Of a DNA stretch of 64,000 nucleotides, positions 1 to 11,237 are shown piece by piece (positions within the stretch are counted from its first letter, which is position 1; each line of letters opens with the position of its first letter). Origin of the DNA: an uncultured Planktomarina sp. (lineage in GTDB: Bacteria > Pseudomonadota > Alphaproteobacteria > Rhodobacterales > Rhodobacteraceae); NCBI GenBank assembly GCA_943788425.1, contig CALSQF010000003.1:55927-119926 (forward strand), read 5' to 3'. The notes under the pieces were generated by a model, which worked only from the letters and a program-made list of their open reading frames with translations, did no database searches and was not told the DNA's origin. Made by a program: the position numbers and the translations under genes.

Positions 1-1338
1 GATTGCGCCTGGAATGAAGGCTCCGCGGAACAAGTCTAATGTTGAAACATCCAGGACAGGGCCCATCACTATAAGCATGATTGATGGGGGGATTAATATT
101 CCTAAAGTGCCCCCCGCGGTAATTGTTCCAGCTGCCAATTGGACATTGTAACCGGACCGGCTCATTGTTGCACCGGCCATAATGCCTAGTAGGGTAACTG
201 AAGCTCCCACAATGCCCGTAGCGGCCGCGAAAATTGTGGAAACGATCAGAACAGCTATGTAAAGTGAGCCCCGAATGCGTGACATAATCATTTGGATTGA
301 AGCAAACAGGCGCTCCATTAATCCTGCCGCTTCCATTACAATACCCATCAAAATAAATAGTGGCACTGCCATTAATTGATCGTTTAGCATGGTGGAATTA
401 GTGTTTAGTGTCATCAAAAGGGTGGTCAATTTAAAATTTGATCCCCAGATTCCAAATACAAATGCTAAAAAAATTAATGTGAACGAAATTGGAAAACCAA
501 TAAATATCACAAAGAGCATCGCGCCCAGCATAATTAGTCCGATGGTCGGTTTTGATAGTCCGGGGCCTTCTGCAATTAGTCCAGAAAACCAATCCGTGAG
601 TGGTAGAGAATTTGGGTAGAAAACTGATATCACGATTGCGCCAACGATAATGAAGTATGGTACTAATAATTTAACAAAGATTGCCTCACGCTCTTTGCCC
701 ATTTTGTGAAAAGCGCGAAATAATTCTGGAAATCCTTGCAGCAACAGCAAAAGTCCCCCAACTGGCATAGCTAAGCGAGCGGGCCAAAGGACTGGCCCCC
801 AGGTGCTGTCAAACGCAGTTTCGCCAGAATTGTAGGCTACAAGCCAGTATTGTGATGTAATTATAGTAAAGAAAATCATCGATGGAATGAAGAATGCCAT
901 GTACGCTAAAGCATCAACCGTCGCTTGCGTTTTATCAGACCAGTTTCGATAAATAAAATCAGCCCGAATATGTACACCACGCATTAAACCATATCCCGCT
1001 GCACCCATAAACAGTACGCCGGCAATCATACGGCTGATATCGTATGCAAAAACCGTTGGGCCTAACCCTATATTTCGAGCTAGCTCATCCCATCCATAGC
1101 CGGACATGATTGCAAAAGAGTTACGAGCAATCACCTCAAAAACGACTACTCCGATTAACGGAACCATAAGTAAGCACAAAAGCTTGCCTGCCCAATCGTT
1201 GGTAATATCGATTGCTGCAGTAATTGGCTTCTGCCAAGGCGTCATGCCATCTGGTGTTTCCCCAGGTCGTTCCGCCCGACGCTCAGCAATTAGCTCATCG
1301 GCTATTTCCAGCTTTTTTGGATCAACTTCTTCAGCCAT
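1..1338 (-). CDS. dctQM: Fused TRAP transporter permease, DctQ-DctM (partial)
   Basis: Membrane permease of a tripartite ATP-independent periplasmic (TRAP) transporter, which drives uptake of an organic acid with an ion gradient. The frame is open from an ATG at 1338 (preceded by GGAGGG) to the window edge, 446 codons, so the C-terminus is missing. Residues about 30-250 form a DctQ-like small permease with four hydrophobic helices. From about residue 260 the DctM-like part begins (GLIMLGAMLFVIFIGFPISF), and it includes the conserved AAATGIVGASVTLLGIMA and TAGGTLGILIPPSIML stretches. Both subunits are thus fused in one chain, as in SiaQM-type systems. It lies 119 bases downstream of the binding-protein gene in the same direction. 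Its base composition is clearly A+T-richer than the rest of the window. Substrate unknown. Confidence 0.9.
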   Translation of the reverse strand, partial: MAEEVDPKKLEIADELIAERRAERPGETPDGMTPWQKPITAAIDITNDWAGKLLCLLMVPLIGVVVFEVIARNSFAIMSGYGWDELARNIGLGPTVFAYDISRMIAGVLFMGAAGYGLMRGVHIRADFIYRNWSDKTQATVDALAYMAFFIPSMIFFTIITSQYWLVAYNSGETAFDSTWGPVLWPARLAMPVGGLLLLLQGFPELFRAFHKMGKEREAIFVKLLVPYFIIVGAIVISVFYPNSLPLTDWFSGLIAEGPGLSKPTIGLIMLGAMLFVIFIGFPISFTLIFLAFVFGIWGSNFKLTTLLMTLNTNSTMLNDQLMAVPLFILMGIVMEAAGLMERLFASIQMIMSRIRGSLYIAVLIVSTIFAAATGIVGASVTLLGIMAGATMSRSGYNVQLAAGTITAGGTLGILIPPSIMLIVMGPVLDVSTLDLFRGAFIPGAI

Positions 1339-1457: not shown

Positions 1458-2570
1458 TTACTTCAAGCTATCAGCGTGTGCCTTGCCTAGGGCAGCGTTT
1501 GAAGCCTGTGCGCCAGCCCAGAAGGGAACCGCAACGTCTGCAAAGTCTTTCTGAGACTGCCAAACTTCAGCAAAGAATTCGTTTTCTGCAGCACCTTTTT
1601 CAAGGAGCGCCTTCGCAGCACCCATGTATGCTGGGAAATAATCCGCTGGAGTATCATGCAAGATAACGCCGTGGTTGTCTGTGAGATCTTTAAGCGCTTT
1701 TCCGTTTGCAAGGATACGATATGACATTGACTTTGATAGAGAAGCATTAGCAGCTACTTCAAGGGCTTTTTTCTCGGTATCGGTCAGGGCATCATAGAAG
1801 TCTCCGTTTACATACAGGTCAGCATTAACCACGACCTGGTGAAGACCCTGCAGGTAGTAATGCTTCAGAACTTTTTGAAATCCAAAAGCCATATCTGCCA
1901 CTGGGCAGCACCATTCAGCTGCGTCGATTGTGCCTTTTTCCAAAGCGGGGAGGATGTCGCCTCCACCCATCGCTACAGAGGCGACGCCGATGTCTTTATA
2001 AGCTTGACCAACCATGCCTGGAGGGGCGCGGAAACGGTATTTGCGGAAGTCGTCCATGGAGGCAATTGGCTCAGAGAACCAACCTAGTGCTTCTGGACCC
2101 ACCGGTTGAAGCATGAAGCCTTTTACATTGACTCCCATTTCATCCCAAAGTTGGTCATACAATTCCTTGCCACCACCATATTGGAACCATGACAAGAACG
2201 ACAGTGCGTCCAGGCCAACGCCGGCGCCAGCTATGGGAGCACCAAAGAGGTTAGCAGCGACGTGTTTACCGCCCCAATAGTGTGTCCAAGCAAAGCCACC
2301 TTCAACCAGCCCTGCATCCACGGCATCCATAACATCTCTGGATCCCACCACTGCACCAGCAGCAAGAACTTCAAGCTTCAAAGATCCGCCAGTCAAGGCA
2401 TAGACATCTTCACCAAAGTCCCTAACCATTTTAATCTCGTCACCAGTGGTTGGTAAGACTGATTGAATGCGCAGTACTTTTGTATGACCATCGGCAAACG
2501 CCGCTGGCGCAAAAGCCAAGCTGGCTACAGTAATAGCAGCTGTCTTGGCAAGTGTTTTCAGGTTAAACAT
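1458..2570 (-). CDS. dctP: TRAP transporter substrate-binding protein (DctP/TakP-like)
   Basis: Periplasmic solute receptor of the TRAP system, 370 residues, typical for the family. A signal peptide is visible (MFNLKTLAKTAAITVASLAF, then APAAFADG, with cleavage after an AxA). The mature protein starts with a beta strand (VLRIQSVLP). The central RFRAPPGMVGQAYKDIGVAS and LPALEKGTIDAAEWCCPVAD segments correspond to the ligand-contacting arginine region and the DctP signature; their layout is closest to TakP, which binds 2-oxoacids. A GGAGG ribosome site precedes the ATG. It is the first gene of the transporter operon. The ligand cannot be decided from sequence alone. Confidence 0.9.
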   Translation of the reverse strand: MFNLKTLAKTAAITVASLAFAPAAFADGHTKVLRIQSVLPTTGDEIKMVRDFGEDVYALTGGSLKLEVLAAGAVVGSRDVMDAVDAGLVEGGFAWTHYWGGKHVAANLFGAPIAGAGVGLDALSFLSWFQYGGGKELYDQLWDEMGVNVKGFMLQPVGPEALGWFSEPIASMDDFRKYRFRAPPGMVGQAYKDIGVASVAMGGGDILPALEKGTIDAAEWCCPVADMAFGFQKVLKHYYLQGLHQVVVNADLYVNGDFYDALTDTEKKALEVAANASLSKSMSYRILANGKALKDLTDNHGVILHDTPADYFPAYMGAAKALLEKGAAENEFFAEVWQSQKDFADVAVPFWAGAQASNAALGKAHADSLK

Positions 2571-2688: not shown

Positions 2689-3357
2689 TTAGTGGCTTTT
2701 GCTGATCTCCCAGCCTTCCACGAGCCCCAAAAGGGGCCCCACTCCATGGTTAATGTCGAAAAAGCCACGGAACATCATTTCACCGGCAACGTAGAGTAGT
2801 ACAATCAGTCCCAACCAGGATATCCATGGATAATTTGTAAGCAACTTCATAATCAAAGTCGCCGCGAATGCCATGAGTACGATCGCCAATCCCAGACCAA
2901 AAATCAAGATTTGTTTGTCGCCATCGGCAATTGCCGCCACGGCGAGAACATTGTCGAGCGACATGGAGACATCTGCAATCGTGATTGAGATCAGGGCGCC
3001 GGCCATGGTTTTTTGTGGCGCTCCTGTGTAGCCCTGCTCAAGATCACCGGCGGTCAGCATCGCCTCCTGCGCATCTCGCTCGAGACCCTCGCGGATTTCT
3101 TGAAACAGACGCCAGCATACCCAAAAAAGCAGCACGGAGCCAATGAACAATATGCCGGGTATACCGAGAAGGGTTGTTGCGATCACGGCAAATACAATCC
3201 GCAGGACAGCCGCAATCACCATACCGTACAAAATAGCGCGTTTGCGCAATTCTGGAGAGAGGCCAGCCGCAGCCATACCGATGATCAAAGCATTGTCACC
3301 TGACAGGATCAAATCCGCGATTATGATTTGACCATAGGCCATTGCAGTATCAAACAT
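2689..3357 (-). CDS. TerC family integral membrane protein
   Basis: Inner-membrane protein of the TerC/YjbE family (222 residues), whose members export or handle metal ions such as manganese and were first found in tellurite resistance loci. The two family signatures with membrane-embedded acidic residues are present: DLILSGDNALIIG near residue 16 and IADVSMSLDNVLAVAAIAD in the second half. About six or seven hydrophobic helices can be drawn. The gene lies 33 bases downstream of the GMC oxidoreductase gene on the same strand. No manganese riboswitch (yybP-ykoY type) is visible in that short gap. The exact substrate is inference. Confidence 0.88.
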   Translation of the reverse strand: MFDTAMAYGQIIIADLILSGDNALIIGMAAAGLSPELRKRAILYGMVIAAVLRIVFAVIATTLLGIPGILFIGSVLLFWVCWRLFQEIREGLERDAQEAMLTAGDLEQGYTGAPQKTMAGALISITIADVSMSLDNVLAVAAIADGDKQILIFGLGLAIVLMAFAATLIMKLLTNYPWISWLGLIVLLYVAGEMMFRGFFDINHGVGPLLGLVEGWEISKSH

Positions 3358-3390: not shown

Positions 3391-4992
3391 TCAACGGGCG
3401 TCCTCCAAAATCATATCCGACAGTTTTTCACCAATCATGATCGCCGGAGCATTTGTGTTGCCAGAGGTGATCGTGGGCATGATGGAGCAATCAGCGACGC
3501 GCAGACCTTTTAGGCCCCGCACTTTCAAACGTGCATCGACAACGGCCAAGTCATCCTGACCCATTTTGCAGGTGCCCGTTGGATGATAGATTGTCACGCT
3601 ATTGTCGCGGGCCCAATTCAATGTTGCGTCATAATCGTCCATGTCGATCTTTGACCCGGGGATAAATTCTTCGATGATATGTGATTTCAATGGCTCAAAC
3701 TGCGCAATGCGGCGCGCTATTTGGATGCCCTTCACGATGGTGTCTTGATCGAGTTTTGTGGCCAAGTAATTGGGGTGAATGGCTGGGTGATCCCGCCAAT
3801 CTGCGGATTTTAACTCGAGATGACCCGTGCTTTCCGGGCGCAATTGCAGCACGGAGGCGGTGAAGGCCGAAAACTTATGCGGCCCATCAGCCGGCGCAGA
3901 GGCGCTGAACGGTTGGATATGAAACTGAATATCTGGTGTTGCCAGCATCGGATCTGTTTTCAAAAAACCGGTGCCAAGACTGGCGGCCATAGTCATTGGT
4001 CCGGTTTGGCTTATGGCGTATTGCAAGGCGATCAGGCCCTGTTTGAAAATATTATTGGTCTCGATGTTTATGGTTGAAAGATTTGTTTTGAAAACCGGCC
4101 GTGCTTGCAGATGATCTTGCAGATTTTTTCCAACGCCTGGCAGATCGCAGATCGGCTCGATCCCCTTTGCTTTCAGTTCCTGTGCGTCGCCAATGCCTGA
4201 GAGCATGAGAATTTGCGGTGAACCGATGGCGCCCGCGCTCAAGATCACTTCCCGGCGGGCGCGGATGGTTTGGCTTTGGCCTTTGATATTGGCAACAACG
4301 CCCTTGGCCTCACCCTGTTCAACCAGCAGTCTCTCGACCTGCGCATGGGTGATAATGGTGAGGTTTTTGCGATTGCGCGCGGGTTTTAGATAGGCCACCG
4401 CGCTGGAGCAGCGCCGCCCTTTGTCCAGGGTCAGTTGGAAATACCCCACCCCTTCTTGATCTGAACTGTTGTAATCGGGATTGCGTTTATATCCAGCGCC
4501 GACGGCGGCATCGAGCCATTTGTCTACGATTTCGCGCTTCAAACGGGTCGGGGATACGGACAGCGGACCGTCTGTGCCCCGCTCTGAATTCTCGGTGCCA
4601 TCGCCCTTCCAAGTTTCTGCGCGTTTGAAATAGGGCAGAACGTCTTCCCACGCCCAGCCAGTGTTGCCGAGTTGCCGCCAATGATTAAAATCTTCGGCTT
4701 GCCCGCGCACATAGAGTAGGCCGTTGATCGAGCTGCAGCCCCCTAACACCCGACCCCGCGGCCAGGGAATATCCCGGCCATTCAGTCCTGGATCGCTTTC
4801 CGTACGATAGCGCCAATCTGTTTTGGGGTTGTCCATCGTTTTGAAATAACCAACCGGGATGTGGATCCATGGATTGGTGTCGCGCCCACCCGCTTCGAGC
4901 AGAGCCACAGAGTATTTTGCATCTGCCGACAGCCGGTTTGCCAGCGCACAGCCGGCGGATCCCGCTCCAATTATTACAAAGTCAAACTCCAA
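3391..4992 (-). CDS. GMC family FAD-dependent oxidoreductase (choline/alcohol dehydrogenase-like)
   Basis: Glucose-methanol-choline oxidoreductase, which oxidises an alcohol using bound FAD. The N-terminal dinucleotide-binding motif (FDFVIIGAGSAGCALANRLS) opens the protein. GMC signature 1 appears as PRGRVLGGCSSINGLLYVRG and signature 2 as GAIGSPQILMLSGIG. The C-terminal active-site region is YHPTGTCKMG, then TNAPAIMIGEK. The frame stays open up to 5169, but the added 59 residues are not family-like and would run across the divergent iclR start. The TTG at 4992 with GGAG just upstream gives the family-typical start M-E-F-D-F and 533 residues. Divergent from an IclR regulator, its likely controller. 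Substrate unknown. Confidence 0.88.
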   Translation of the reverse strand: MEFDFVIIGAGSAGCALANRLSADAKYSVALLEAGGRDTNPWIHIPVGYFKTMDNPKTDWRYRTESDPGLNGRDIPWPRGRVLGGCSSINGLLYVRGQAEDFNHWRQLGNTGWAWEDVLPYFKRAETWKGDGTENSERGTDGPLSVSPTRLKREIVDKWLDAAVGAGYKRNPDYNSSDQEGVGYFQLTLDKGRRCSSAVAYLKPARNRKNLTIITHAQVERLLVEQGEAKGVVANIKGQSQTIRARREVILSAGAIGSPQILMLSGIGDAQELKAKGIEPICDLPGVGKNLQDHLQARPVFKTNLSTINIETNNIFKQGLIALQYAISQTGPMTMAASLGTGFLKTDPMLATPDIQFHIQPFSASAPADGPHKFSAFTASVLQLRPESTGHLELKSADWRDHPAIHPNYLATKLDQDTIVKGIQIARRIAQFEPLKSHIIEEFIPGSKIDMDDYDATLNWARDNSVTIYHPTGTCKMGQDDLAVVDARLKVRGLKGLRVADCSIMPTITSGNTNAPAIMIGEKLSDMILEDAR

Positions 4993-5025
4993 GCCAGCTC
5001 CATCATCAAAAAATGAGACTTTTAT

Positions 5026-5041
5026 TCTCGTTTTTTCGAGA
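5026..5041. promoter_or_regulatory. Inverted repeat in the GMC/iclR divergent promoter
   Basis: TCTCG-TTTTTT-CGAGA forms a perfect 5-bp inverted repeat in the 143-base gap between the divergent starts. Its position suits an operator for the IclR-family regulator. IclR sites are usually short imperfect palindromes, so this is a candidate only. Confidence 0.35.
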
Positions 5042-5135
5042 TTTATGTTACTATGCAGGAAAGATGAGATTCGGCAATATAATTTTGCATGGGTGCGATG
5101 CGAAGTTTGGGTCGAGAGGGTGAAGTGAGAAGACA

Positions 5136-5891
5136 ATGGAAGATCGTATTCCAACGAATTTACGCACATTGCTGATCCTGGAGGTTTTGGGGACGTCTGA
5201 TCGTGCGCTGTCGCCCACTGAAATCAACAAATCGATTGGCCTGCCCAAGCAAACCATTCACCGCCTCTGCGCCAAGCTAGAGCGGGAGGGGTTTTTGGCC
5301 CGGGAAGAAGATGGCAAGAAACTGCGCCCAACGCGGCGCTCGCGGCTTATGGCATCGGGTCTTCTGCATGCCTCCCGTCATCATATCGCACGGCACCAGG
5401 TGATGCAAAGTGTGGCGGATGAAGTTGGCGAGACGGTCAACTTCGTGGTGCCCGACAGCAAAGGGATGATCTATGTCGATCGGGTCGAAACGGACTGGCC
5501 CTTTCGGGTGCAATTGCCTGTCGGGACCCATGTGCCGTTTCACTGTACGGCAAGCGGTAAAACCTTTCTGGCCAGCTTGGCACCAAAGGCGCGCCAAGCG
5601 ATGGTGCGCAGCTTGCAGCTCAAGGATTTAACGGCCAATACGCTGTGCACGGAAGACGCGCTTTTGGCCGAGCTCAAGCAAGTTGCGAAAAATGGCTATG
5701 CCTTCGACCGCGAGGAATTTTTCATCGGGATGGTGGCGATGGCCGTGCCAATTCTGGACGAACGCGGGCGCTATGTGGCGTCTTTGGCCTTTCATGGCCC
5801 GATACAGCGGTTGACCTATGAAGACGCCTGGTCAAAGCGGCAGGTTCTCATTGATGGCGCGCGCCTGATGCGCGACGTGTTATTTGAGTAA
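5136..5891 (+). CDS. IclR family transcriptional regulator
   Basis: DNA-binding regulator of 251 residues. The N-terminal winged helix-turn-helix (LSPTEINKSIGLPKQTIHRL, about residues 26-45) is followed by the IclR effector domain, with typical segments such as ETVNFVVPDSKGMIYVDRVE, LPVGTHVPFHCTASGKTFLA and YAFDREEFFIGMVAMAVPI. Members bind small organic acids and regulate adjacent catabolic genes. It is transcribed away from the GMC oxidoreductase gene, so it probably controls that gene and itself. The 3' end faces the convergent LacI regulator 37 bases away. Confidence 0.92.
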   Translation: MEDRIPTNLRTLLILEVLGTSDRALSPTEINKSIGLPKQTIHRLCAKLEREGFLAREEDGKKLRPTRRSRLMASGLLHASRHHIARHQVMQSVADEVGETVNFVVPDSKGMIYVDRVETDWPFRVQLPVGTHVPFHCTASGKTFLASLAPKARQAMVRSLQLKDLTANTLCTEDALLAELKQVAKNGYAFDREEFFIGMVAMAVPILDERGRYVASLAFHGPIQRLTYEDAWSKRQVLIDGARLMRDVLFE

Positions 5892-5928: not shown

Positions 5929-6942
5929 CTAGATCCGCGCAAGCGTCCCGCGATCGATGATGCTTGTCACCAGCTCGTGCCTCAGGATTTGCCCCGGCTC
6001 TTGATTGAGTAAAGCCAGCAACACCTCTGCTGCTTTGCGACCCATAGAGTGCTGAGGCACGCGCACGGTAGTCAGGCTGGGCGTGGTGACCCGTGCCAAT
6101 GAAATATCATCAAACCCGGTGATTGAAATATCGTCTGGCACGCGCAATCCTAACTTACGGGCTTGCAGCATGGCACCCACCGCCAGAACATCGCTGCCGC
6201 AAATCACCGCAGAGGGTTTGTCCGAGCTGGACAGCAGCTGCGCAAAGGCCGCCCCGGCCTCTTCAAAACTATATTTACACTCTTCAAGCCCTAAGAGTTG
6301 CGCATCGGTTTGGGCCGCGATTGCTTGTTTTATGCCAATGACGCGGGCGGTAGCGCGGTCGTTGCCCTCTCTGAGGCCGCAAATGACCGCCAGTTTCCGA
6401 TGCCCATGGGCCAAAACATGCGCCGTGATATCATGGCCTGATTTTTGATTGTCAAAGCCGACGCTCGGTGACTGACCTGTTTTTGGACAGCACCAAGCCA
6501 AGATATGCGGGATGGCGTGTTGTCTCAAGAAAGCTTGGGTTTTCTCGGGTCGTGCTGCCCCAATCAGCAATAATCCATCAGCCCCCTGTGACAGCAAAGA
6601 GCGAATGGATTTAAATTCTTGGTCTGGATCATAGTTTGAGCTGCCGACCAGCAGGGTCACACCGGCGGCGCTGAGCGTTTCTTGAAAGGCTTGCAGGCCG
6701 CTGGCGAACATCGCGTTGTCCATCGTCGGAATGATAGCACCAATCGTATTGGTGCGATTGCGTGCTAAAGCACGGCCGCCAAAATGGGGCAAGTAGCCGA
6801 GAGTCTCAATGGCATTTTGAATCCGCTGCCGGGTGGGCTCCGCCACTTTGTGGGGTGAATTGATGCAGCGTGAAATGGAAGCTGTCGACACGCCTGCCAA
6901 TGCGGCCACGTCTTCGAGGCTGGGGCGATTGCTGTCACGCAT
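5929..6942 (-). CDS. LacI family transcriptional regulator
   Basis: LacI/GalR-type regulator, 337 residues from the ATG at 6942. A longer frame from 7050 exists, but its extra 36 residues are not LacI-like and would read through the operator region. The helix-turn-helix is SLEDVAALAGVSTASISRCI at the N-terminus; the hinge and periplasmic-binding-protein-like core follow (NTIGAIIPTMDNAMFASGLQ, then CGSDVLAVGAMLQARKLGLR and TGFDDISLARVTTPSLTTVR). It is divergent from the hpsN-like operon, and two LacI-type palindromes lie between the two starts, so autoregulation and control of the sulfonate operon are likely. The effector is unknown; a pathway intermediate is a reasonable guess. Confidence 0.92.
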   Translation of the reverse strand: MRDSNRPSLEDVAALAGVSTASISRCINSPHKVAEPTRQRIQNAIETLGYLPHFGGRALARNRTNTIGAIIPTMDNAMFASGLQAFQETLSAAGVTLLVGSSNYDPDQEFKSIRSLLSQGADGLLLIGAARPEKTQAFLRQHAIPHILAWCCPKTGQSPSVGFDNQKSGHDITAHVLAHGHRKLAVICGLREGNDRATARVIGIKQAIAAQTDAQLLGLEECKYSFEEAGAAFAQLLSSSDKPSAVICGSDVLAVGAMLQARKLGLRVPDDISITGFDDISLARVTTPSLTTVRVPQHSMGRKAAEVLLALLNQEPGQILRHELVTSIIDRGTLARI

Positions 6943-6972
6943 GATAATTTCCCATTCGTTGTTCTTGATGAA

Positions 6973-7008
6973 TGTAAGCGCTTGCATAGTGTAATGCAAG
7001 CGCTTACA
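6973..7008. promoter_or_regulatory. Twin LacI-family operators
   Basis: The arms TGTAAGCGCTTGCAT (6973-6987) and ATGCAAGCGCTTACA (6994-7008) are perfect inverted copies separated by 6 bases. Each arm is itself a near-palindrome centred on the GC of AAGCGCTT, the classic LacI/GalR-family operator core. The two centres are 22 bases apart, about two helical turns, so two dimers could bind the same face. The hpsN start is about 40 bases away and any promoter in either direction must overlap these sites, which suits repression. Confidence 0.8.
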
Positions 7009-7049
7009 CAATGAGTCGAAAACACAAATAACTTCCAAGGATGTTTGCA

Positions 7050-8357
7050 ATGGCTCGGGTCTATCTCAAAAAATCTACAAAAACCGCCTCGACGGGCAGC
7101 GATGATGTTCGCGCAACAGTCATGGGAATTCTCAATGACATCGAAACGGGGGGTGACGCGGTTGCGCTTGAATATGCGGCAAAATTTGACGGGTATGATG
7201 GAAATTTGATTTTGACCGAGGCGGAAATCCAAGCGGCTTGTGATTTGGTGCCAGAAAAGCTGAAGCAAGATATTCAATTTGCCCATGCCAATGTGAAACG
7301 CTTCGCCGAAGCGCAGCGCGGTACGATTACTGATTTTGAGACAGAAATCGTGCCGGGCTTGATTGCGGGGCAAAAGAGTATTCCTTGCAATGCGGCTGGC
7401 TGCTACATCCCAGGTGGGCGTTATAGCCATATCGCCAGTGCAATCATGACTGTAACTACAGCCAAGGTGGCCGGTTGCCAGCATATCACCGCCTGTTCGC
7501 CCCCTGCCAAAGACGCTGGAGTCGCGCCTGCGATTATCTACGCGGCCCATCACTGCGGCGCAGATAAGATTTTGGCCATGGGCGGGGTGCAGGGCGTGGC
7601 TTCGATGACTTTTGGACTGTTTGGCCTGCCAGAGGCGGATATTATCGTGGGGCCGGGCAATCAGTTCGTGGCCGAGGCTAAACGCATTTTGTTTGGCCGT
7701 GTTGGTATTGATATGATTGCTGGTCCAACCGACAGCTTGGTGATCGCCGACGGCACAGCAGATGCGGAAATTGTTGCCGCCGATTTGGTTGGCCAAGCGG
7801 AACACGGGTATAATTCACCGGTTTGGCTGGTGACAGATGATGAGCCGTTGGCGCAAAAAGTCTTGGAAATTGTTCCTAGCTTGATTGCGGATTTGCCTGA
7901 GCTTAATCGGATCAATGCGGAAGCGGCCTGGCGTGATTACGCAGAAGTTATTCTCTGTGAGGATCGAGAAGAAATGGCTGCCACCTCCGATGAATATGCG
8001 CCAGAGCATTTGACCGTTCAGGCCGATGATTTGGATTGGTGGCTTGATCGTTTGAGCTGTTATGGCTCTTTGTTCCTTGGTGAGGAAACCACTGTTGCCT
8101 ATGGCGACAAAGCCTCGGGTCCGAACCATTGCTTGCCCACCTCGCGTTCGGCCAAATACACTGGTGGATTGTCCGTGCATAAATACATGAAATTGGTCAC
8201 TTGGCAGCGTGCCACCCGCGATGGCGCCAAAGATGTGGCCATTGCCACTGCACGCATTTCCCGGCTTGAGGGCATGGAAGGCCATGCGCGCACCGCGGAT
8301 ATTCGTTTGGCGAAATATTATCCGGGTGAAAACTTTGATCTGTCAGCGCAGGGTTAA
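7050..8357 (+). CDS. hpsN: HpsN-type sulfopropanediol 3-dehydrogenase (histidinol dehydrogenase family)
   Basis: NAD-dependent zinc enzyme of the histidinol dehydrogenase fold, 435 residues. The family residues are in place: GPGNQFVAEAKR, GPTDSLVIAD, QAEHGYNSPVW (zinc ligand region) and YAPEHLTVQ (catalytic Glu-His). Two things argue for HpsN, which oxidises (R)-2,3-dihydroxypropanesulfonate to sulfolactate, rather than for histidine biosynthesis: no other his gene is nearby, and the sulfopyruvate decarboxylase genes follow in the same operon. The C-terminal YTGGLSVHKYMKLVTWQRAT resembles roseobacter HpsN-like proteins as I remember them. An upstream ATG at 7041 exists, but AAGGA at 7037-7041 is spaced correctly for 7050. 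First gene of the operon, divergent from lacI. Confidence 0.82.
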   Translation: MARVYLKKSTKTASTGSDDVRATVMGILNDIETGGDAVALEYAAKFDGYDGNLILTEAEIQAACDLVPEKLKQDIQFAHANVKRFAEAQRGTITDFETEIVPGLIAGQKSIPCNAAGCYIPGGRYSHIASAIMTVTTAKVAGCQHITACSPPAKDAGVAPAIIYAAHHCGADKILAMGGVQGVASMTFGLFGLPEADIIVGPGNQFVAEAKRILFGRVGIDMIAGPTDSLVIADGTADAEIVAADLVGQAEHGYNSPVWLVTDDEPLAQKVLEIVPSLIADLPELNRINAEAAWRDYAEVILCEDREEMAATSDEYAPEHLTVQADDLDWWLDRLSCYGSLFLGEETTVAYGDKASGPNHCLPTSRSAKYTGGLSVHKYMKLVTWQRATRDGAKDVAIATARISRLEGMEGHARTADIRLAKYYPGENFDLSAQG

Positions 8358-8360
8358 TCG

Positions 8361-9119
8361 ATGAGGTCTGCGTCATTGTTCAGCGTTGCGGGTAAGATTG
8401 CCGTTGTGACCGGTGCGTCCAGTGGCTTGGGGCAGGGGGCGGCCAGCCTGCTTGCCACGCATGGGGCGCAGGTCGTTGCGATTGCCCGACGCGCGGATGC
8501 TCTCGCGACTTGGTCTGAACAAACCCCGGGCGAAACCGCCATTTTGGCTGCAGATCTATCGGATCGCTCGTGTTTGGACGATGTGGCCGCGCAAGCGGCC
8601 AAGCCCTTTGGCGCGCCCGATATTTTAATCAATGCGGCGGGTATCAACACGCGCCGGCCAGCCGATGAGATGACGGATGCCGATTGGGATGTGACGCAAA
8701 ACCTCAATGTGGCCGCACCATTCTTTTTAGCCAAATCCATGGTGCCTGGGATGCGGGAAAAGGGATGGGGGCGGATCATCAATTTTGCCTCTTTGCAATC
8801 GCGCCGCGCTTTTGCGAATGGTATCAGCTATGGGGCGTCCAAAGGGGCTGTTGAGCAGATGACCCGTGCAATGGCTGAGACGTGGTCATCGGATGGCATA
8901 ACAGCCAATGCCCTCGCGCCAGGTTTCTTTCATACAGAATTGACGGCGCCCGTTTTTGCAGATCCTGACCTTGCGGCCCGTAATGCCGCGCAGACCTGCA
9001 TCGGGCGCAATGGTCAGGTTCGTGATATGGACGGGCCTATGATGTTTCTTTGTTCTGCCGCTTCAGATTATGTGACGGGACAGATTCTATTTGTAGATGG
9101 AGGATATACGGCGAAATGA
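8361..9119 (+). CDS. SDR family oxidoreductase, candidate DHPS 2-dehydrogenase
   Basis: Short-chain dehydrogenase/reductase, 252 residues. The cofactor motif is GASSGLGQGAASLL near residue 18, the NAG-like motif reads INAAGIN, and the catalytic tyrosine and lysine are in ISYGASKGAVEQM. The C-terminus (DYVTGQILFVDGGYTAK) is classic. It starts 3 bases after hpsN stops and overlaps the next gene by ATGA, so it is in the same operon. Known DHPS clusters carry one or two 2-dehydrogenases (HpsO, HpsP) that interconvert DHPS enantiomers, and this gene is a good candidate for one. That role is inferred from position only. Confidence 0.85.
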   Translation: MRSASLFSVAGKIAVVTGASSGLGQGAASLLATHGAQVVAIARRADALATWSEQTPGETAILAADLSDRSCLDDVAAQAAKPFGAPDILINAAGINTRRPADEMTDADWDVTQNLNVAAPFFLAKSMVPGMREKGWGRIINFASLQSRRAFANGISYGASKGAVEQMTRAMAETWSSDGITANALAPGFFHTELTAPVFADPDLAARNAAQTCIGRNGQVRDMDGPMMFLCSAASDYVTGQILFVDGGYTAK

Positions 9120-10111
9120 AGGCTCTGGTAAACACGGATGTAGAGACACTCACCTATATGGATCAGGCAGACCCCATCGCCAAAGCAGGCGAGGAGCTGG
9201 TTCGCATCCAATATTCAGGCATTTGCGGATCTGATATGCATGCATTTCTGGGCCATGATGCGCGCAGGCCGACACCAATTATTTTGGGCCATGAAGCCTC
9301 GGGGACGATTGTGGGTGGGCCGCGTGACGGCACATTGGTCACCATCAACCCGCTAAATGGCTGTGGTACATGCCATGCCTGCCAGTCAGGAAAACCGAAT
9401 ATTTGTTTGGGGCGCCAAATCATTTCTATGCCGCCGCGTCCAGGTGCCTTTGCTGAACTGGTGGCCATTCCCAGCGAAAATCTACTGGTGGTGCCCCGGG
9501 CGGAGCTTTTGCAATCGGCGGCTTTGACAGAACCTTTGGCTTGTAGCTGGCATGCCGCGCGCCTCGGCCTGCGCTTGCAAGATGATCCGGTGGAGAACCT
9601 CGCCTGCGTGGTCCTTGGCGGCGGGGCCATTGGGCTTGGCGCGGCGCTCTGCTTGCGGGCAATGGGCGTTCAAGACATCACTTTGATTGAGGTAAACCCG
9701 CTGCGTCTGGCCACACTGAAGGGTATGGATGGTTTTAAAGCCAGCGATGGCAAAGACGCCCATGCACCAAAGGACGGCAGCGCCGATTTGGTCATTGACG
9801 GCGTTGGCTATGCGGCCACCCGTGCTGCGGCCTGTGAATTGGCCAAGCCAGGTGGGGTGATCTCGCATATTGGCCTCGGCTCGGGAGAAGGTGGCGTCGA
9901 TGTGCGCCGTATGACGCTGCATGAAATCACTCTGATTGGCTGCTATACCTATACCCCCAAGGACTTCCAAGAGACCGGCGAGGCGATTTTTGCCGGTAAA
10001 ATGGGACCTTTGGACTGGGTCGAAACCCGACATTTGTCAGAGGGGCAAAGTGCCTTTGATGACATCCGCAGCGGCAACACCCCTGCGCCCAAAATTATTC
10101 TAATCCCCTGA
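9116..10111 (+). CDS. Zinc-dependent alcohol dehydrogenase (MDR family)
   Basis: Medium-chain dehydrogenase of 331 residues. The catalytic zinc region reads SGICGSDMHA and LGHEASGT, the structural zinc loop carries four cysteines in GCGTCHACQSGKPNIC, and the nucleotide-binding glycines are VVLGGGAIGLGAAL. The frame is open upstream to 9050, but the ATG at 9116 overlaps the SDR stop (ATGA) and gives the family-typical start MKALVNT. Its place between the SDR and comD suggests a second DHPS or sulfolactate oxidation step, for example the opposite enantiomer. The substrate is not proven. Confidence 0.85.
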   Translation: MKALVNTDVETLTYMDQADPIAKAGEELVRIQYSGICGSDMHAFLGHDARRPTPIILGHEASGTIVGGPRDGTLVTINPLNGCGTCHACQSGKPNICLGRQIISMPPRPGAFAELVAIPSENLLVVPRAELLQSAALTEPLACSWHAARLGLRLQDDPVENLACVVLGGGAIGLGAALCLRAMGVQDITLIEVNPLRLATLKGMDGFKASDGKDAHAPKDGSADLVIDGVGYAATRAAACELAKPGGVISHIGLGSGEGGVDVRRMTLHEITLIGCYTYTPKDFQETGEAIFAGKMGPLDWVETRHLSEGQSAFDDIRSGNTPAPKIILIP

Positions 10112-10121
10112 AAGGAGCATC

Positions 10122-10619
10122 ATGTCCGTTAGTGAGAAAATAGTGGCTGATTTCGTTGCAAATGGCATCGAATTTGTCACAACCGTACCGTGCAAACAGC
10201 TTGGCGGTGTGATCGATGCGGTTGAAAAAGAACCCAGCATTTATCACATTCCCTCAAATAAAGAAGACGAGGGCATGGGCCTTTGCGCCGGCGCTTTCAT
10301 GGGGGGCAAACGTCCCGCCATTATCATGCAAAACACGGCCATTGGCGTCACAGTGAACACATTGGTTACCCTGACCCAGTTTTACCGCATGCCGCTACCA
10401 ATGCTCATTTCGTATCGGGGTGAATTGAAAGAGCCTGTGGCGTGTCAGGTCGAAATGGCTGTGCACACCAAAGCTCTGCTCAACCAATTGAACATTCCAA
10501 CCTATCACTTCCATAAGTCAGGTGATGAGGAGGAGTTGGATGCGATTTTGAAATACACTTTCATGTGCAACAAACCGGTGGCAATTTTGACTGATGCGAC
10601 CTTCTGGGGAGGTTATTAA
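10122..10619 (+). CDS. comD: Sulfopyruvate decarboxylase subunit alpha
   Basis: Pyrimidine-binding half of a thiamine-diphosphate decarboxylase, 165 residues. Typical ComD features are the N-terminal FVTTVPCKQLGGVIDA, the IPSNKEDEGMGLCAGAFMGG segment holding the glutamate that activates thiamine, and MQNTAIGVTVNTLVTL. Together with the beta subunit it converts sulfopyruvate to sulfoacetaldehyde, which Xsc would then split to sulfite and acetyl phosphate. A GGAG site precedes the ATG by 7 bases. Phosphonopyruvate decarboxylases are close relatives but are normally one fused chain; the split form next to hpsN supports the sulfonate role. Confidence 0.85.
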   Translation: MSVSEKIVADFVANGIEFVTTVPCKQLGGVIDAVEKEPSIYHIPSNKEDEGMGLCAGAFMGGKRPAIIMQNTAIGVTVNTLVTLTQFYRMPLPMLISYRGELKEPVACQVEMAVHTKALLNQLNIPTYHFHKSGDEEELDAILKYTFMCNKPVAILTDATFWGGY

Positions 10620-10620
10620 T

Positions 10621-11184
10621 ATGATCCGTTCTGAAATCATCCGCGATATCGCCCCAATTTTGCGTGACCAATTGGTTGTGTGTAACATCGGTCTGCCCAG
10701 CCAAGAGCTGCATATGATCGACGACCAAGCCAGCAACTTCTATATGCTTGGCACCATGGGCCTGTCATCATCCATCGGTCTTGGGCTTGCCTTGGCTCAA
10801 GATAAAACCGTGATCTCCATTGACGGTGACGGTTCAGTTCTGACCAACTTTGGTACATTGCCTACGATTGCGAATAACGTGGCCGACAATTTCATTCTAT
10901 TGATCGTCGACAATGGCAGCTACGGCTCCACTGGGGATCAACCCACCTATGCGGGCCAGAAAACCTCTTTGGCGGCTGTGGCGAAGGCCTGTGGCTGCGA
11001 GACGGTGATTGAATGTCAGGCTGAAGAGACTGGCGCTGTGCTTAAAGCGGCCATTGAGTCGCAGAAAATGTCTGTGATCGTATCCAAATGTGAGAGTGGC
11101 AATATCAAAGTCCCCGTCATAACAAAAGATCCGGTTGTCATCCGAGATCGGTTCATGACTGAGGTAGCACGCCGCAACGCCTGA
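10621..11184 (+). CDS. comE: Sulfopyruvate decarboxylase subunit beta
   Basis: Diphosphate-binding half of the thiamine-dependent enzyme, 187 residues. The thiamine signature is complete: IDGDGSVLTNFGTLPTIANN, i.e. GDG followed by a double asparagine. The start at 10621 is one base after the comD stop and has GGAGG about 9 bases upstream; the longer frame from 10594 would overlap comD. Last gene of the operon, followed by a strong terminator. No xsc, pta or sulfolactate dehydrogenase (slcCD, comC) lies in the window, so the pathway must be completed elsewhere. Confidence 0.87.
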   Translation: MIRSEIIRDIAPILRDQLVVCNIGLPSQELHMIDDQASNFYMLGTMGLSSSIGLGLALAQDKTVISIDGDGSVLTNFGTLPTIANNVADNFILLIVDNGSYGSTGDQPTYAGQKTSLAAVAKACGCETVIECQAEETGAVLKAAIESQKMSVIVSKCESGNIKVPVITKDPVVIRDRFMTEVARRNA

Positions 11185-11207
11185 GTAACAGCTTTCAGCA
11201 GGTTTGA

Positions 11208-11237
11208 GGCCCGCCAAGAGATTGGCGGGCCTTTTTT
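11208..11237 (+). terminator. Rho-independent terminator after comE
   Basis: A 10-bp stem GGCCCGCCAA / TTGGCGGGCC with a GAGA tetraloop is followed by six T. It ends the hpsN-comE operon 24 bases after the comE stop. Confidence 0.92.

What the first reader, a model, noticed from the sequence alone, without database searches (positions are those of the whole stretch)
5929..11237. LacI-controlled DHPS-type sulfonate operon: hpsN-SDR-ADH-comD-comE
An HpsN-like enzyme, two further dehydrogenases and the two-subunit sulfopyruvate decarboxylase form one tight operon, with ATGA overlap, a one-base gap and a terminator. Known DHPS routes use HpsN, then a sulfolactate dehydrogenase (SlcCD or ComC), then ComDE and Xsc. 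Here no classical sulfolactate dehydrogenase is present, so the SDR or the zinc dehydrogenase may do that step, or may handle the other enantiomer. The local LacI regulator and the lack of a local transporter also differ from textbook clusters as I know them.
Basis: partly seen in the sequence, partly recalled or inferred. Interest (0 to 1): 0.75.

Follow-up and report, generated by a model that had tools for sequence, protein, structure and literature searches.

The report
Planktomarina sulfonate operon with remote partner
This is a recognisable bacterial gene set for eating DHPS, a sulfur compound made by marine algae, and the enzyme missing from it may be an old gene elsewhere in the genome that carries the same regulator-binding site.

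Summary
The operon is real and its parts can be named. The window is from a Planktomarina-like (RCA Roseobacter) genome. 5929-11237 holds hpsR (LacI), hpsN, hpsO, hpsP, comD, comE and a terminator. The two 'further dehydrogenases' match the solved DHPS enzymes HpsO and HpsP, so they should act on DHPS, not sulfolactate. A LacI regulator is standard. Xsc is encoded elsewhere.

Two departures remain. (1) No SlcD orthologue was found in the 93%-complete genome. An FMN 2-hydroxyacid oxidase between uvrD and pyc carries an exact HpsR operator one base before its ATG. The site is exact in 10 of 15 same-genus genomes holding that gene, one mismatch off in an eleventh, decayed in three with hpsN and absent in one without. 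I infer an old gene captured into the HpsR regulon as sulfolactate dehydrogenase. (2) HpsK has no orthologue in 20 genus genomes. An unrelated TRAP transporter with an IseJ-like dehydrogenase lies beside the operon. In six of nine loci inspected elsewhere that unit runs straight into hpsN, and it shares no surveyed locus with hpsKLM.

A new variant of a known kind. Binding, activity and transport are untested.

The parts
5929..6942 (-). hpsR: LacI-family repressor, 337 aa; 49% identical to the LacI of a classical hps cluster (Alisedimentitalea) and 40% to that of Cupriavidus pinatubonensis
6973..6986 (.). HpsR operator 1 (predicted), TGTAAGCGCTTGCA
   Evidence: 2 sites in the window, 0.01 expected from shuffles
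6995..7008 (.). HpsR operator 2 (predicted), TGCAAGCGCTTACA, 22 bases from the first; paired sites 21-23 bases apart recur in many other hps loci
7050..8357 (+). hpsN: (R)-DHPS 3-dehydrogenase, to (R)-sulfolactate
   Evidence: best solved match 8wwe (R)-DHPS dehydrogenase 699.6 bits, HisD entries at most 256.7; diagnostic His127 (C. pinatubonensis 126) kept, and tree placement
8361..9119 (+). hpsO: SDR, (R)-DHPS dehydrogenase
   Evidence: best solved match 8wwf HpsO, 376.7 bits; substrate Gln146 (R. pomeroyi Gln147) kept
9116..10111 (+). hpsP: zinc alcohol dehydrogenase, (S)-DHPS dehydrogenase
   Evidence: best solved match 8wwd, 382.8 bits, next 94.4; His59 kept
10122..10619 (+). comD: sulfopyruvate decarboxylase alpha
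   Evidence: TIGR03845 above cut-off
10621..11184 (+). comE: sulfopyruvate decarboxylase beta
   Evidence: TIGR03846 above cut-off
11208..11237 (+). intrinsic terminator
5136..5891 (+). IclR-family regulator of the neighbouring unit, 50% identical to the IclR of a Ruegeria TRAP-GMC cluster
3391..5169 (-). GMC flavoprotein dehydrogenase, IseJ-like (longest ORF; the conserved part begins near 4990); 60-65% identical to GMC enzymes beside xsc or IclR-TRAP on Paracoccus, Ruegeria and Leisingera plasmids
2689..3357 (-). TerC-family membrane protein, found with this unit in many other genomes
1458..2570 (-). TRAP solute-binding protein (DctP family); proposed DHPS importer. Solved relatives carry mixed names (generic, sorbitol/mannitol-, ketoacid-, lactate-binding)
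1..1338 (-). fused TRAP DctQ-DctM permease, 824 aa, running out of the window

Best explanation
An HpsR-repressed operon for DHPS by the Xsc route. HpsN takes (R)-DHPS to (R)-sulfolactate; HpsO and HpsP oxidise (R)- and (S)-DHPS. Sulfolactate is oxidised to sulfopyruvate by an FMN-dependent 2-hydroxyacid oxidase encoded far away (G000:C4, about 343998-345146), an old gene between uvrD and pyc that gained an HpsR operator. It would therefore come on with the operon although it is not an orthologue of SlcD. ComDE decarboxylate sulfopyruvate, and Xsc with Pta and a SoeABC-like complex (C10) finish. DHPS enters through the neighbouring fused TRAP transporter instead of HpsKLM. Shown: gene identities by homology, operator-like sites and their conservation, gene neighbourhoods, no SlcD, SuyB or HpsK orthologue found. 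Inferred: binding of HpsR, substrate of the remote enzyme (about 0.6 likely), substrate of the TRAP (about 0.55 likely).
For: HpsNOP identity. ComDE. Xsc and its neighbours. No SlcD at E 1e-130 in G000; SuyB best 34%. Remote gene: exact operator one base before the ATG in 10 of the 15 same-genus genomes with the gene, one mismatch in G010. All 151 distinct exact operator sites in 3.53 Mb of held DNA (312 sequences, overlaps included) lie within 700 bases of hpsR/N/K (142) or the remote gene (9). The gene sits between uvrD and pyc in 15 of 15 genus genomes that hold it; orthologues in genomes without hpsN (G015, G022, G024) lack the exact site. The His and Arg of this enzyme family are present (roles recalled). 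Stereochemistry fits: (2R)-sulfolactate is the L form (recalled; compare the names), and this family is L-specific (recalled). TRAP: hpsKLM and TRAP_w share 0 of 80 named loci (41 hold KLM, 15 TRAP_w, 24 neither); among 46 hpsN+ genomes 20 have HpsK only, 13 TRAP_w only, 2 both, 11 neither; in six of the nine loci inspected hpsN starts -1 to 83 bases after the TRAP, or after a DUF475-like gene that follows the TRAP.
Against: The remote enzyme is in a clade apart from hps-linked SlcD, and no alignment column invariant in both was found that the other oxidase classes lack. The operator has decayed in three hpsN+ genomes (G009, G014, G016). Four of 18 hpsN+ genus genomes lack the gene (G007, G008, G013, G019); three of these are 67-86% complete, but G019 is 98% complete and has hpsNOP-comDE. 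The seat beside pyc suggests an older role in lactate or pyruvate metabolism. LacI-family operators resemble one another, so another LacI protein might bind there, and the whole genome could not be scanned for the site. Three named loci carry TRAP_w, comDE and slcD together (L021, L044, L079). The TRAP unit also occurs in three of the 149 family genomes without hpsN. Only HpsK was searched for in the genomes, not HpsL and HpsM. GabD-2 and CuyA were not searched for.
Confidence: 0.68

Rival explanations
1. The remote oxidase is an L-lactate or other 2-hydroxyacid dehydrogenase feeding pyruvate carboxylase, and HpsR controls it (and perhaps pyc) to adjust central metabolism during growth on DHPS. 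Sulfolactate is oxidised by another enzyme.
For: It lies before pyc on the same strand (154 bases in G000) in all 15 genus genomes with the gene and in G022 and G024, which lack hpsN. Its nearest named families are lactate dehydrogenase and lactate or mandelate oxidases.
Against: SlcD of classical hps clusters is the same kind of enzyme with the same nearest solved relatives, and the pathway has a gap exactly there. DHPS degradation by Xsc gives acetyl phosphate (PMC11382572, passages), not pyruvate.
Confidence: 0.25
2. The core Ldh_2 protein (G000:C6:442612-443538) is ComC and oxidises (R)-sulfolactate with NAD.
For: Its best NCBIfam model is L-sulfolactate dehydrogenase; a relative was found in all 16 genus genomes searched (G000-G015).
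Against: 130 bits against a cut-off of 500; its best solved match is delta1-piperideine-2-carboxylate reductase (141.8 bits; the L-sulfolactate dehydrogenase entry 2x06 108.0). No sulfonate gene among the ORFs listed beside it, and no exact operator in the 18 kb around it. Hps-linked comC goes with suyB (14 of 33 such loci) and with none of 27 comDE loci.
Confidence: 0.15
3. One reading: HpsO or HpsP is the sulfolactate dehydrogenase.
For: They are in the operon, and no other candidate is.
Against: Closest relatives are solved DHPS dehydrogenases, with substrate residues kept. The same genes sit in clusters that also carry slcD or suyAB.
Confidence: 0.07
4. The IclR-GMC-TerC-TRAP unit is only an isethionate cluster; its closeness to hpsN reflects shared need for Xsc, and DHPS enters by another transporter.
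For: GMC relatives sit directly before xsc on two Paracoccus plasmids. The unit exists without hpsN in G049, G090 and G093.
Against: The solute-binding protein has no BLAST hit (E 1e-3) to those of the iclR-TRAP-GMC clusters, and the permease only short weak ones. The unit also precedes hpsN where suyAB follow and Xsc is not needed (L036, L038), and it shares no surveyed locus with hpsKLM.
Confidence: 0.3

Closest known systems
Ruegeria pomeroyi hpsR-hpsKLM-hpsNOP-hpsQ-slcD (PMC4334477, passages)
   Same: LacI regulator, hpsN, hpsO and hpsP in the same order
   Different: Here no hpsKLM, no UspA (hpsQ), no slcD in the operon; comDE added
Xsc-type clusters hpsNOP-comDE-slcD, such as Ruegeria sp. 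ANG-S4 (PMC11382572, passages; locus L051)
   Same: HpsNOP, ComDE and Xsc route
   Different: No slcD found in the genome at the cut-off used; a paralogue elsewhere carries the operator; different TRAP
Cupriavidus pinatubonensis hpsRNOUPsuyAB (PMC11382572, passages; L122)
   Same: LacI; HpsN 55%, HpsO 46%, HpsP 41% identical
   Different: SuyAB route and MFS importer there
Isethionate clusters iseR-iseJ-iseKLM (R. pomeroyi, PMC4334477 and PMC10130141, passages)
   Same: An alcohol-type dehydrogenase, a regulator and a TRAP in one unit; on plasmids of relatives: IclR, GMC, TRAP, in some with xsc
   Different: Fused TRAP without BLAST kinship of the binding protein, plus TerC; GMC in a sister clade of the xsc- or TRAP-linked ones. 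R. pomeroyi IseJ itself was not compared

Membership tests
HpsN (DHPS 3-dehydrogenase) | His126 of the GRYAH/GRYSH motif, absent from HisD (PMC11382572, passages) | tested here: met
   His127 in the window protein; present in 20 of 20 HpsN rows, absent from 11 of 11 HisD and HisD-like rows
HpsN (DHPS 3-dehydrogenase) | Groups with characterised HpsN, not HisD | tested here: met
   20-row clade with C. pinatubonensis HpsN, 99/99; a long-branch warning applies to that row
HpsN (DHPS 3-dehydrogenase) | Oxidises (R)-DHPS to sulfolactate | not testable with these tools
   needs an assay
HpsO | SDR with Gln147 (R. pomeroyi numbering), nearest to solved HpsO | tested here: met
HpsP | Zinc dehydrogenase with His59, nearest to solved HpsP | tested here: met
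   that 8wwd is HpsP is my inference from its entry number and His59
ComDE | Both subunits over the curated sulfopyruvate decarboxylase cut-offs | tested here: met
Xsc-type DHPS pathway | xsc in the genome | tested here: met
   931 bits against 676.4
Xsc-type DHPS pathway | SlcD orthologue | tested here: not met
   none at E 1e-130 in G000; best 39%
Classical hps cluster | hpsKLM transporter | tested here: not met
   not in the operon; HpsK in 20 genus genomes: no match above 76 bits, against 777 in G020; HpsL and HpsM not searched genome-wide
SlcD (for the remote oxidase) | Clusters with hps-linked SlcD | tested here: not met
   separate clade; SlcD clade 100/99
SlcD (for the remote oxidase) | FMN 2-hydroxyacid oxidase family | tested here: met
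HpsR regulon (for the remote oxidase) | Exact operator at the start of the gene, conserved between species | tested here: met
   10 of 15 exact, 1 with one mismatch, 4 without
HpsR regulon (for the remote oxidase) | HpsR binds there | not testable with these tools
   needs a binding assay
IseJ (for the GMC protein) | Inside the clade of xsc- or TRAP-linked GMC enzymes | tested here: inconclusive
   60-65% identity, sister group rather than inside (88/90, not starred)

The most novel reading that the evidence does not exclude
Planktomarina lineages rebuilt a sulfonate pathway by swaps. An ancestral 2-hydroxyacid oxidase at its old seat beside pyc was taken into the HpsR regulon by gain of one operator and replaces SlcD. 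A fused TRAP of another family, in one unit with an IseJ-like dehydrogenase, replaces HpsKLM and serves as a shared importer for isethionate and DHPS.
Probability: 0.45. Interest if true: 0.62.

Novelty: new variant of a known kind. Interest (0 to 1): 0.52.

Why it matters
DHPS is described as an important currency from phytoplankton to bacteria (PMC11131964, abstract), and the RCA cluster as a major Roseobacter lineage of temperate to polar oceans (PMC10675870, start of abstract). If right, surveys that look for hpsKLM and slcD will call these bacteria incomplete DHPS users although they are not. It also gives two concrete genes to test, and a clean case of a missing pathway step traced by following a regulator's operator, and of an old gene drawn into a regulon where it stands.

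Tried and rejected
HisD for the HisD-like protein: rejected by motif and tree. Phosphonopyruvate decarboxylase for ComDE: rejected by cut-offs. SuyAB route: only a 34% hit to SuyB in G000, probably altronate dehydratase (that name is my guess). IseKLM for the window's TRAP: no BLAST hit between the solute-binding proteins. The oxidase class 46-53% identical to SlcD found in some genus members: not among the G000 hits, no exact operator in 9 of 9 such loci, L127-L135, and beside a thiamine-diphosphate enzyme in the two neighbourhoods looked at, L190 and L196. Operators in the fetched xsc, GMC and TRAP neighbourhoods of G000: none. An apparent rule that TRAP_w and slcD exclude one another among comDE genomes (TRAP_w in 6 of 6 slcD-less and 0 of 9 slcD-bearing genomes; tallied by hand, G000 included) is broken by named loci L021, L044 and L079, so I do not build on it. 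Fisher values assume independent genomes, which they are not. The closest thing to a negative control, 16 other oxidase loci without the exact site, includes two orthologues of the remote gene from genomes without hpsN (L136, L148). No structure prediction was run.
Full report
WHAT IS THERE. The window is G000:C3:55927-119926 of a 2.54 Mb, 93% complete genome. Its nearest named relatives include Rhodobacteraceae IMCC1909 and an uncultured Planktomarina bin (HpsN 98-99% identical).

THE TWO UNKNOWN DEHYDROGENASES. HpsN matches the solved (R)-DHPS dehydrogenase 8wwe at 699.6 bits, against at most 256.7 for any histidinol dehydrogenase. It carries the His that distinguishes HpsN from HisD, the catalytic Glu-His and Asp, and groups with C. 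pinatubonensis HpsN. The SDR's best solved match is HpsO (8wwf, 376.7 bits) with its substrate Gln kept. The zinc enzyme's is 8wwd (382.8 bits, next best 94.4), with His59 kept. I take 8wwd to be D. shibae HpsP because its entry number adjoins the other two and His59 fits; the entry is titled only zinc-containing alcohol dehydrogenase. According to PMC11131964 (passages), HpsO and HpsP oxidise (R)- and (S)-DHPS to sulfolactaldehyde, GabD-2 takes that to sulfolactate, and HpsN takes (R)-DHPS to sulfolactate. Older work proposed interconversion of the enantiomers (PMC11382572, passages). Either way they act before sulfolactate. GabD-2 was not searched for here.

THE REST OF THE ROUTE. Xsc is at G000:C10:17543 (931 bits, cut-off 676.4), followed by pta and by a molybdopterin, an iron-sulfur and a DmsC-type subunit, which I read as SoeABC. 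PMC10675870 (passages) already reports hpsN, comDE and soeABC in many RCA species and xsc in almost all; its main text does not contain the word starts sulfolactate, isethionate or TRAP. SuyB has no orthologue in G000 (34%).

THE MISSING STEP. In classical clusters SlcD is an FMN 2-hydroxyacid oxidase after comE or the UspA gene. Its position in L029 and L051 fits the published order and names. Of 80 named hps loci, 27 hold comD or comE and 10 of those also slcD; some of the other 17, such as L042 and L045, are cut by a contig end. No SlcD orthologue was found in G000 (E 1e-130). The best relative, 39% identical, is at C4:344019. Scanning DNA held at that point for the operator that lies twice before hpsN, I found one more copy of it in G000: one base before the ATG of that C4 gene. 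Chance is a poor explanation: 0.01 sites expected in the 64 kb window, none in 200 shuffles of the C4 stretch.

CONSERVATION OF THE SITE. Of 20 genus genomes, 15 hold the gene. The site is exact at the same place in 10 (G000-G006, G011, G012, G017) and has one mismatch in G010. It is decayed in G009, G014 and G016, which have hpsN, and absent in G015, which does not. Two orthologues from other genera without hpsN (G022, G024) also lack it. G009 and G014 are sisters in the tree (G016 was not in it), so loss may have happened once. Over the 312 sequences held (3.53 Mb, overlaps included), 151 distinct exact sites were found, and all lie by hpsR/hpsN/hpsK (142) or the remote gene (9). These loci were chosen around hps genes, so the figure shows few false sites, not the whole regulon.

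WHAT THE REMOTE GENE IS. It sits between uvrD and pyc in 15 of 15 genus genomes that hold it and in the outgroup G022, and beside pyc in G024, so it seems not to have moved. Its tree place is apart from SlcD. It is therefore not SlcD by descent. My reading is that an ancestral L-2-hydroxyacid oxidase was taken into the HpsR regulon. HpsN makes (R)-sulfolactate, which is the L form (recalled), the form such enzymes take (recalled). The ATG directly follows the operator with no clear ribosome site between, so how translation starts is open. Against: G013 and G019 have hpsNOP-comDE but neither SlcD nor this gene, and G007 and G008, less complete, lack it too, so another solution may exist there.

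THE TRANSPORTER. HpsK has no orthologue in any of the 20 genus genomes: no match above 76 bits (about 25% identity; short stretches higher), against 777 bits in G020. Beside the operon, IclR, GMC, TerC, DctP and a fused DctQM form a unit. In the genus it lies beside this type of hps operon in 11 of 13 loci surveyed, the other two being cut by contig ends; it is not beside the second operon type in G010, G012, G013 and G019. Of 80 named hps loci, 41 have hpsKLM genes, 15 this TRAP, none both, 24 neither. Among 149 genomes of the family, about one per genus, 15 of the 18 with this TRAP have hpsN against 31 of 131 without. Among the 46 hpsN+ genomes, 20 have HpsK only, 13 this TRAP only, 2 both, 11 neither. 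One genome with both, G116, has two hpsN copies, one beside each transporter. In L036, L038, L044, L057, L079 and L234 the unit runs into hpsN, which starts -1 to 83 bases after the gene before it; in four of them a DUF475-like gene lies between TRAP and hpsN (Pfam checked for L038 and L234). None of these six shows an hpsR in the stretch held. GMC relatives at 60-62% lie directly before xsc on two Paracoccus plasmids, which suggests isethionate dehydrogenase. The window's GMC belongs to a sister clade. I infer a shared sulfonate importer; the nearest solved solute-binding proteins do not settle the ligand.

KNOWN OR NEW. The enzymes are known. Xsc-type hps clusters are known (PMC11382572, passages). 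In the listings of ten searches no title or abstract start described an HpsR regulon, the remote oxidase or the TRAP swap. Most listed papers were not opened, one search showed 20 of 383, the library holds only open-licence papers, and two older key papers are not in it. In a survey of LacI regulons (PMC4052901, passages) the word start 'sulfo' does not occur in the main text.

Noticed in passing
G000:C15:17607-18893 (L010 7584-8894): A HisD-like protein with motif GKFPM in place of GRYSH, in a supported clade (98/97) apart from both HpsN and HisD, near an SDR and a LacI gene; substrate unknown.
   Followed up: partly
G000:C7:14297-15521 (L011 6283-7600): The probable biosynthetic HisD is split over two overlapping frames in this assembly; G001, G003 and G011 show it in one open frame.
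   Followed up: no
L038 5043-6089, L079 6590-7636, L234 11839-12885; window 2689-3357: DUF475 or TerC-family membrane proteins often lie between the TRAP genes and hpsN or between TRAP and GMC; a possible exporter of sulfite or a linked ion, unexplained.
   Followed up: partly
L190 4127-13411 (G003), L196 8892-11853 (G014): Another FMN 2-hydroxyacid oxidase (51-52% to SlcD) next to a thiamine-diphosphate enzyme in both, with a separate TRAP and an Ldh_2 gene nearby in G003: perhaps a further 2-hydroxyacid pathway.
   Followed up: no
L019, L020, L022, L053, L071, L089: Short hpsN-comD-comE modules, five of six with hpsR in view, in Granulosicoccaceae and Alphaproteobacteria, without hpsO/hpsP directly after hpsN (L053 has an hpsO-like gene after comE). 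The window's HpsN falls in a fork with L019, L022 and L025 (94/92, not starred), hinting at transfer.
   Followed up: partly
L009 7951-9615 (just left of the window): A trimethylamine-methyltransferase-like (MttB) gene beside the TRAP unit, also there in L012-L014.
   Followed up: no
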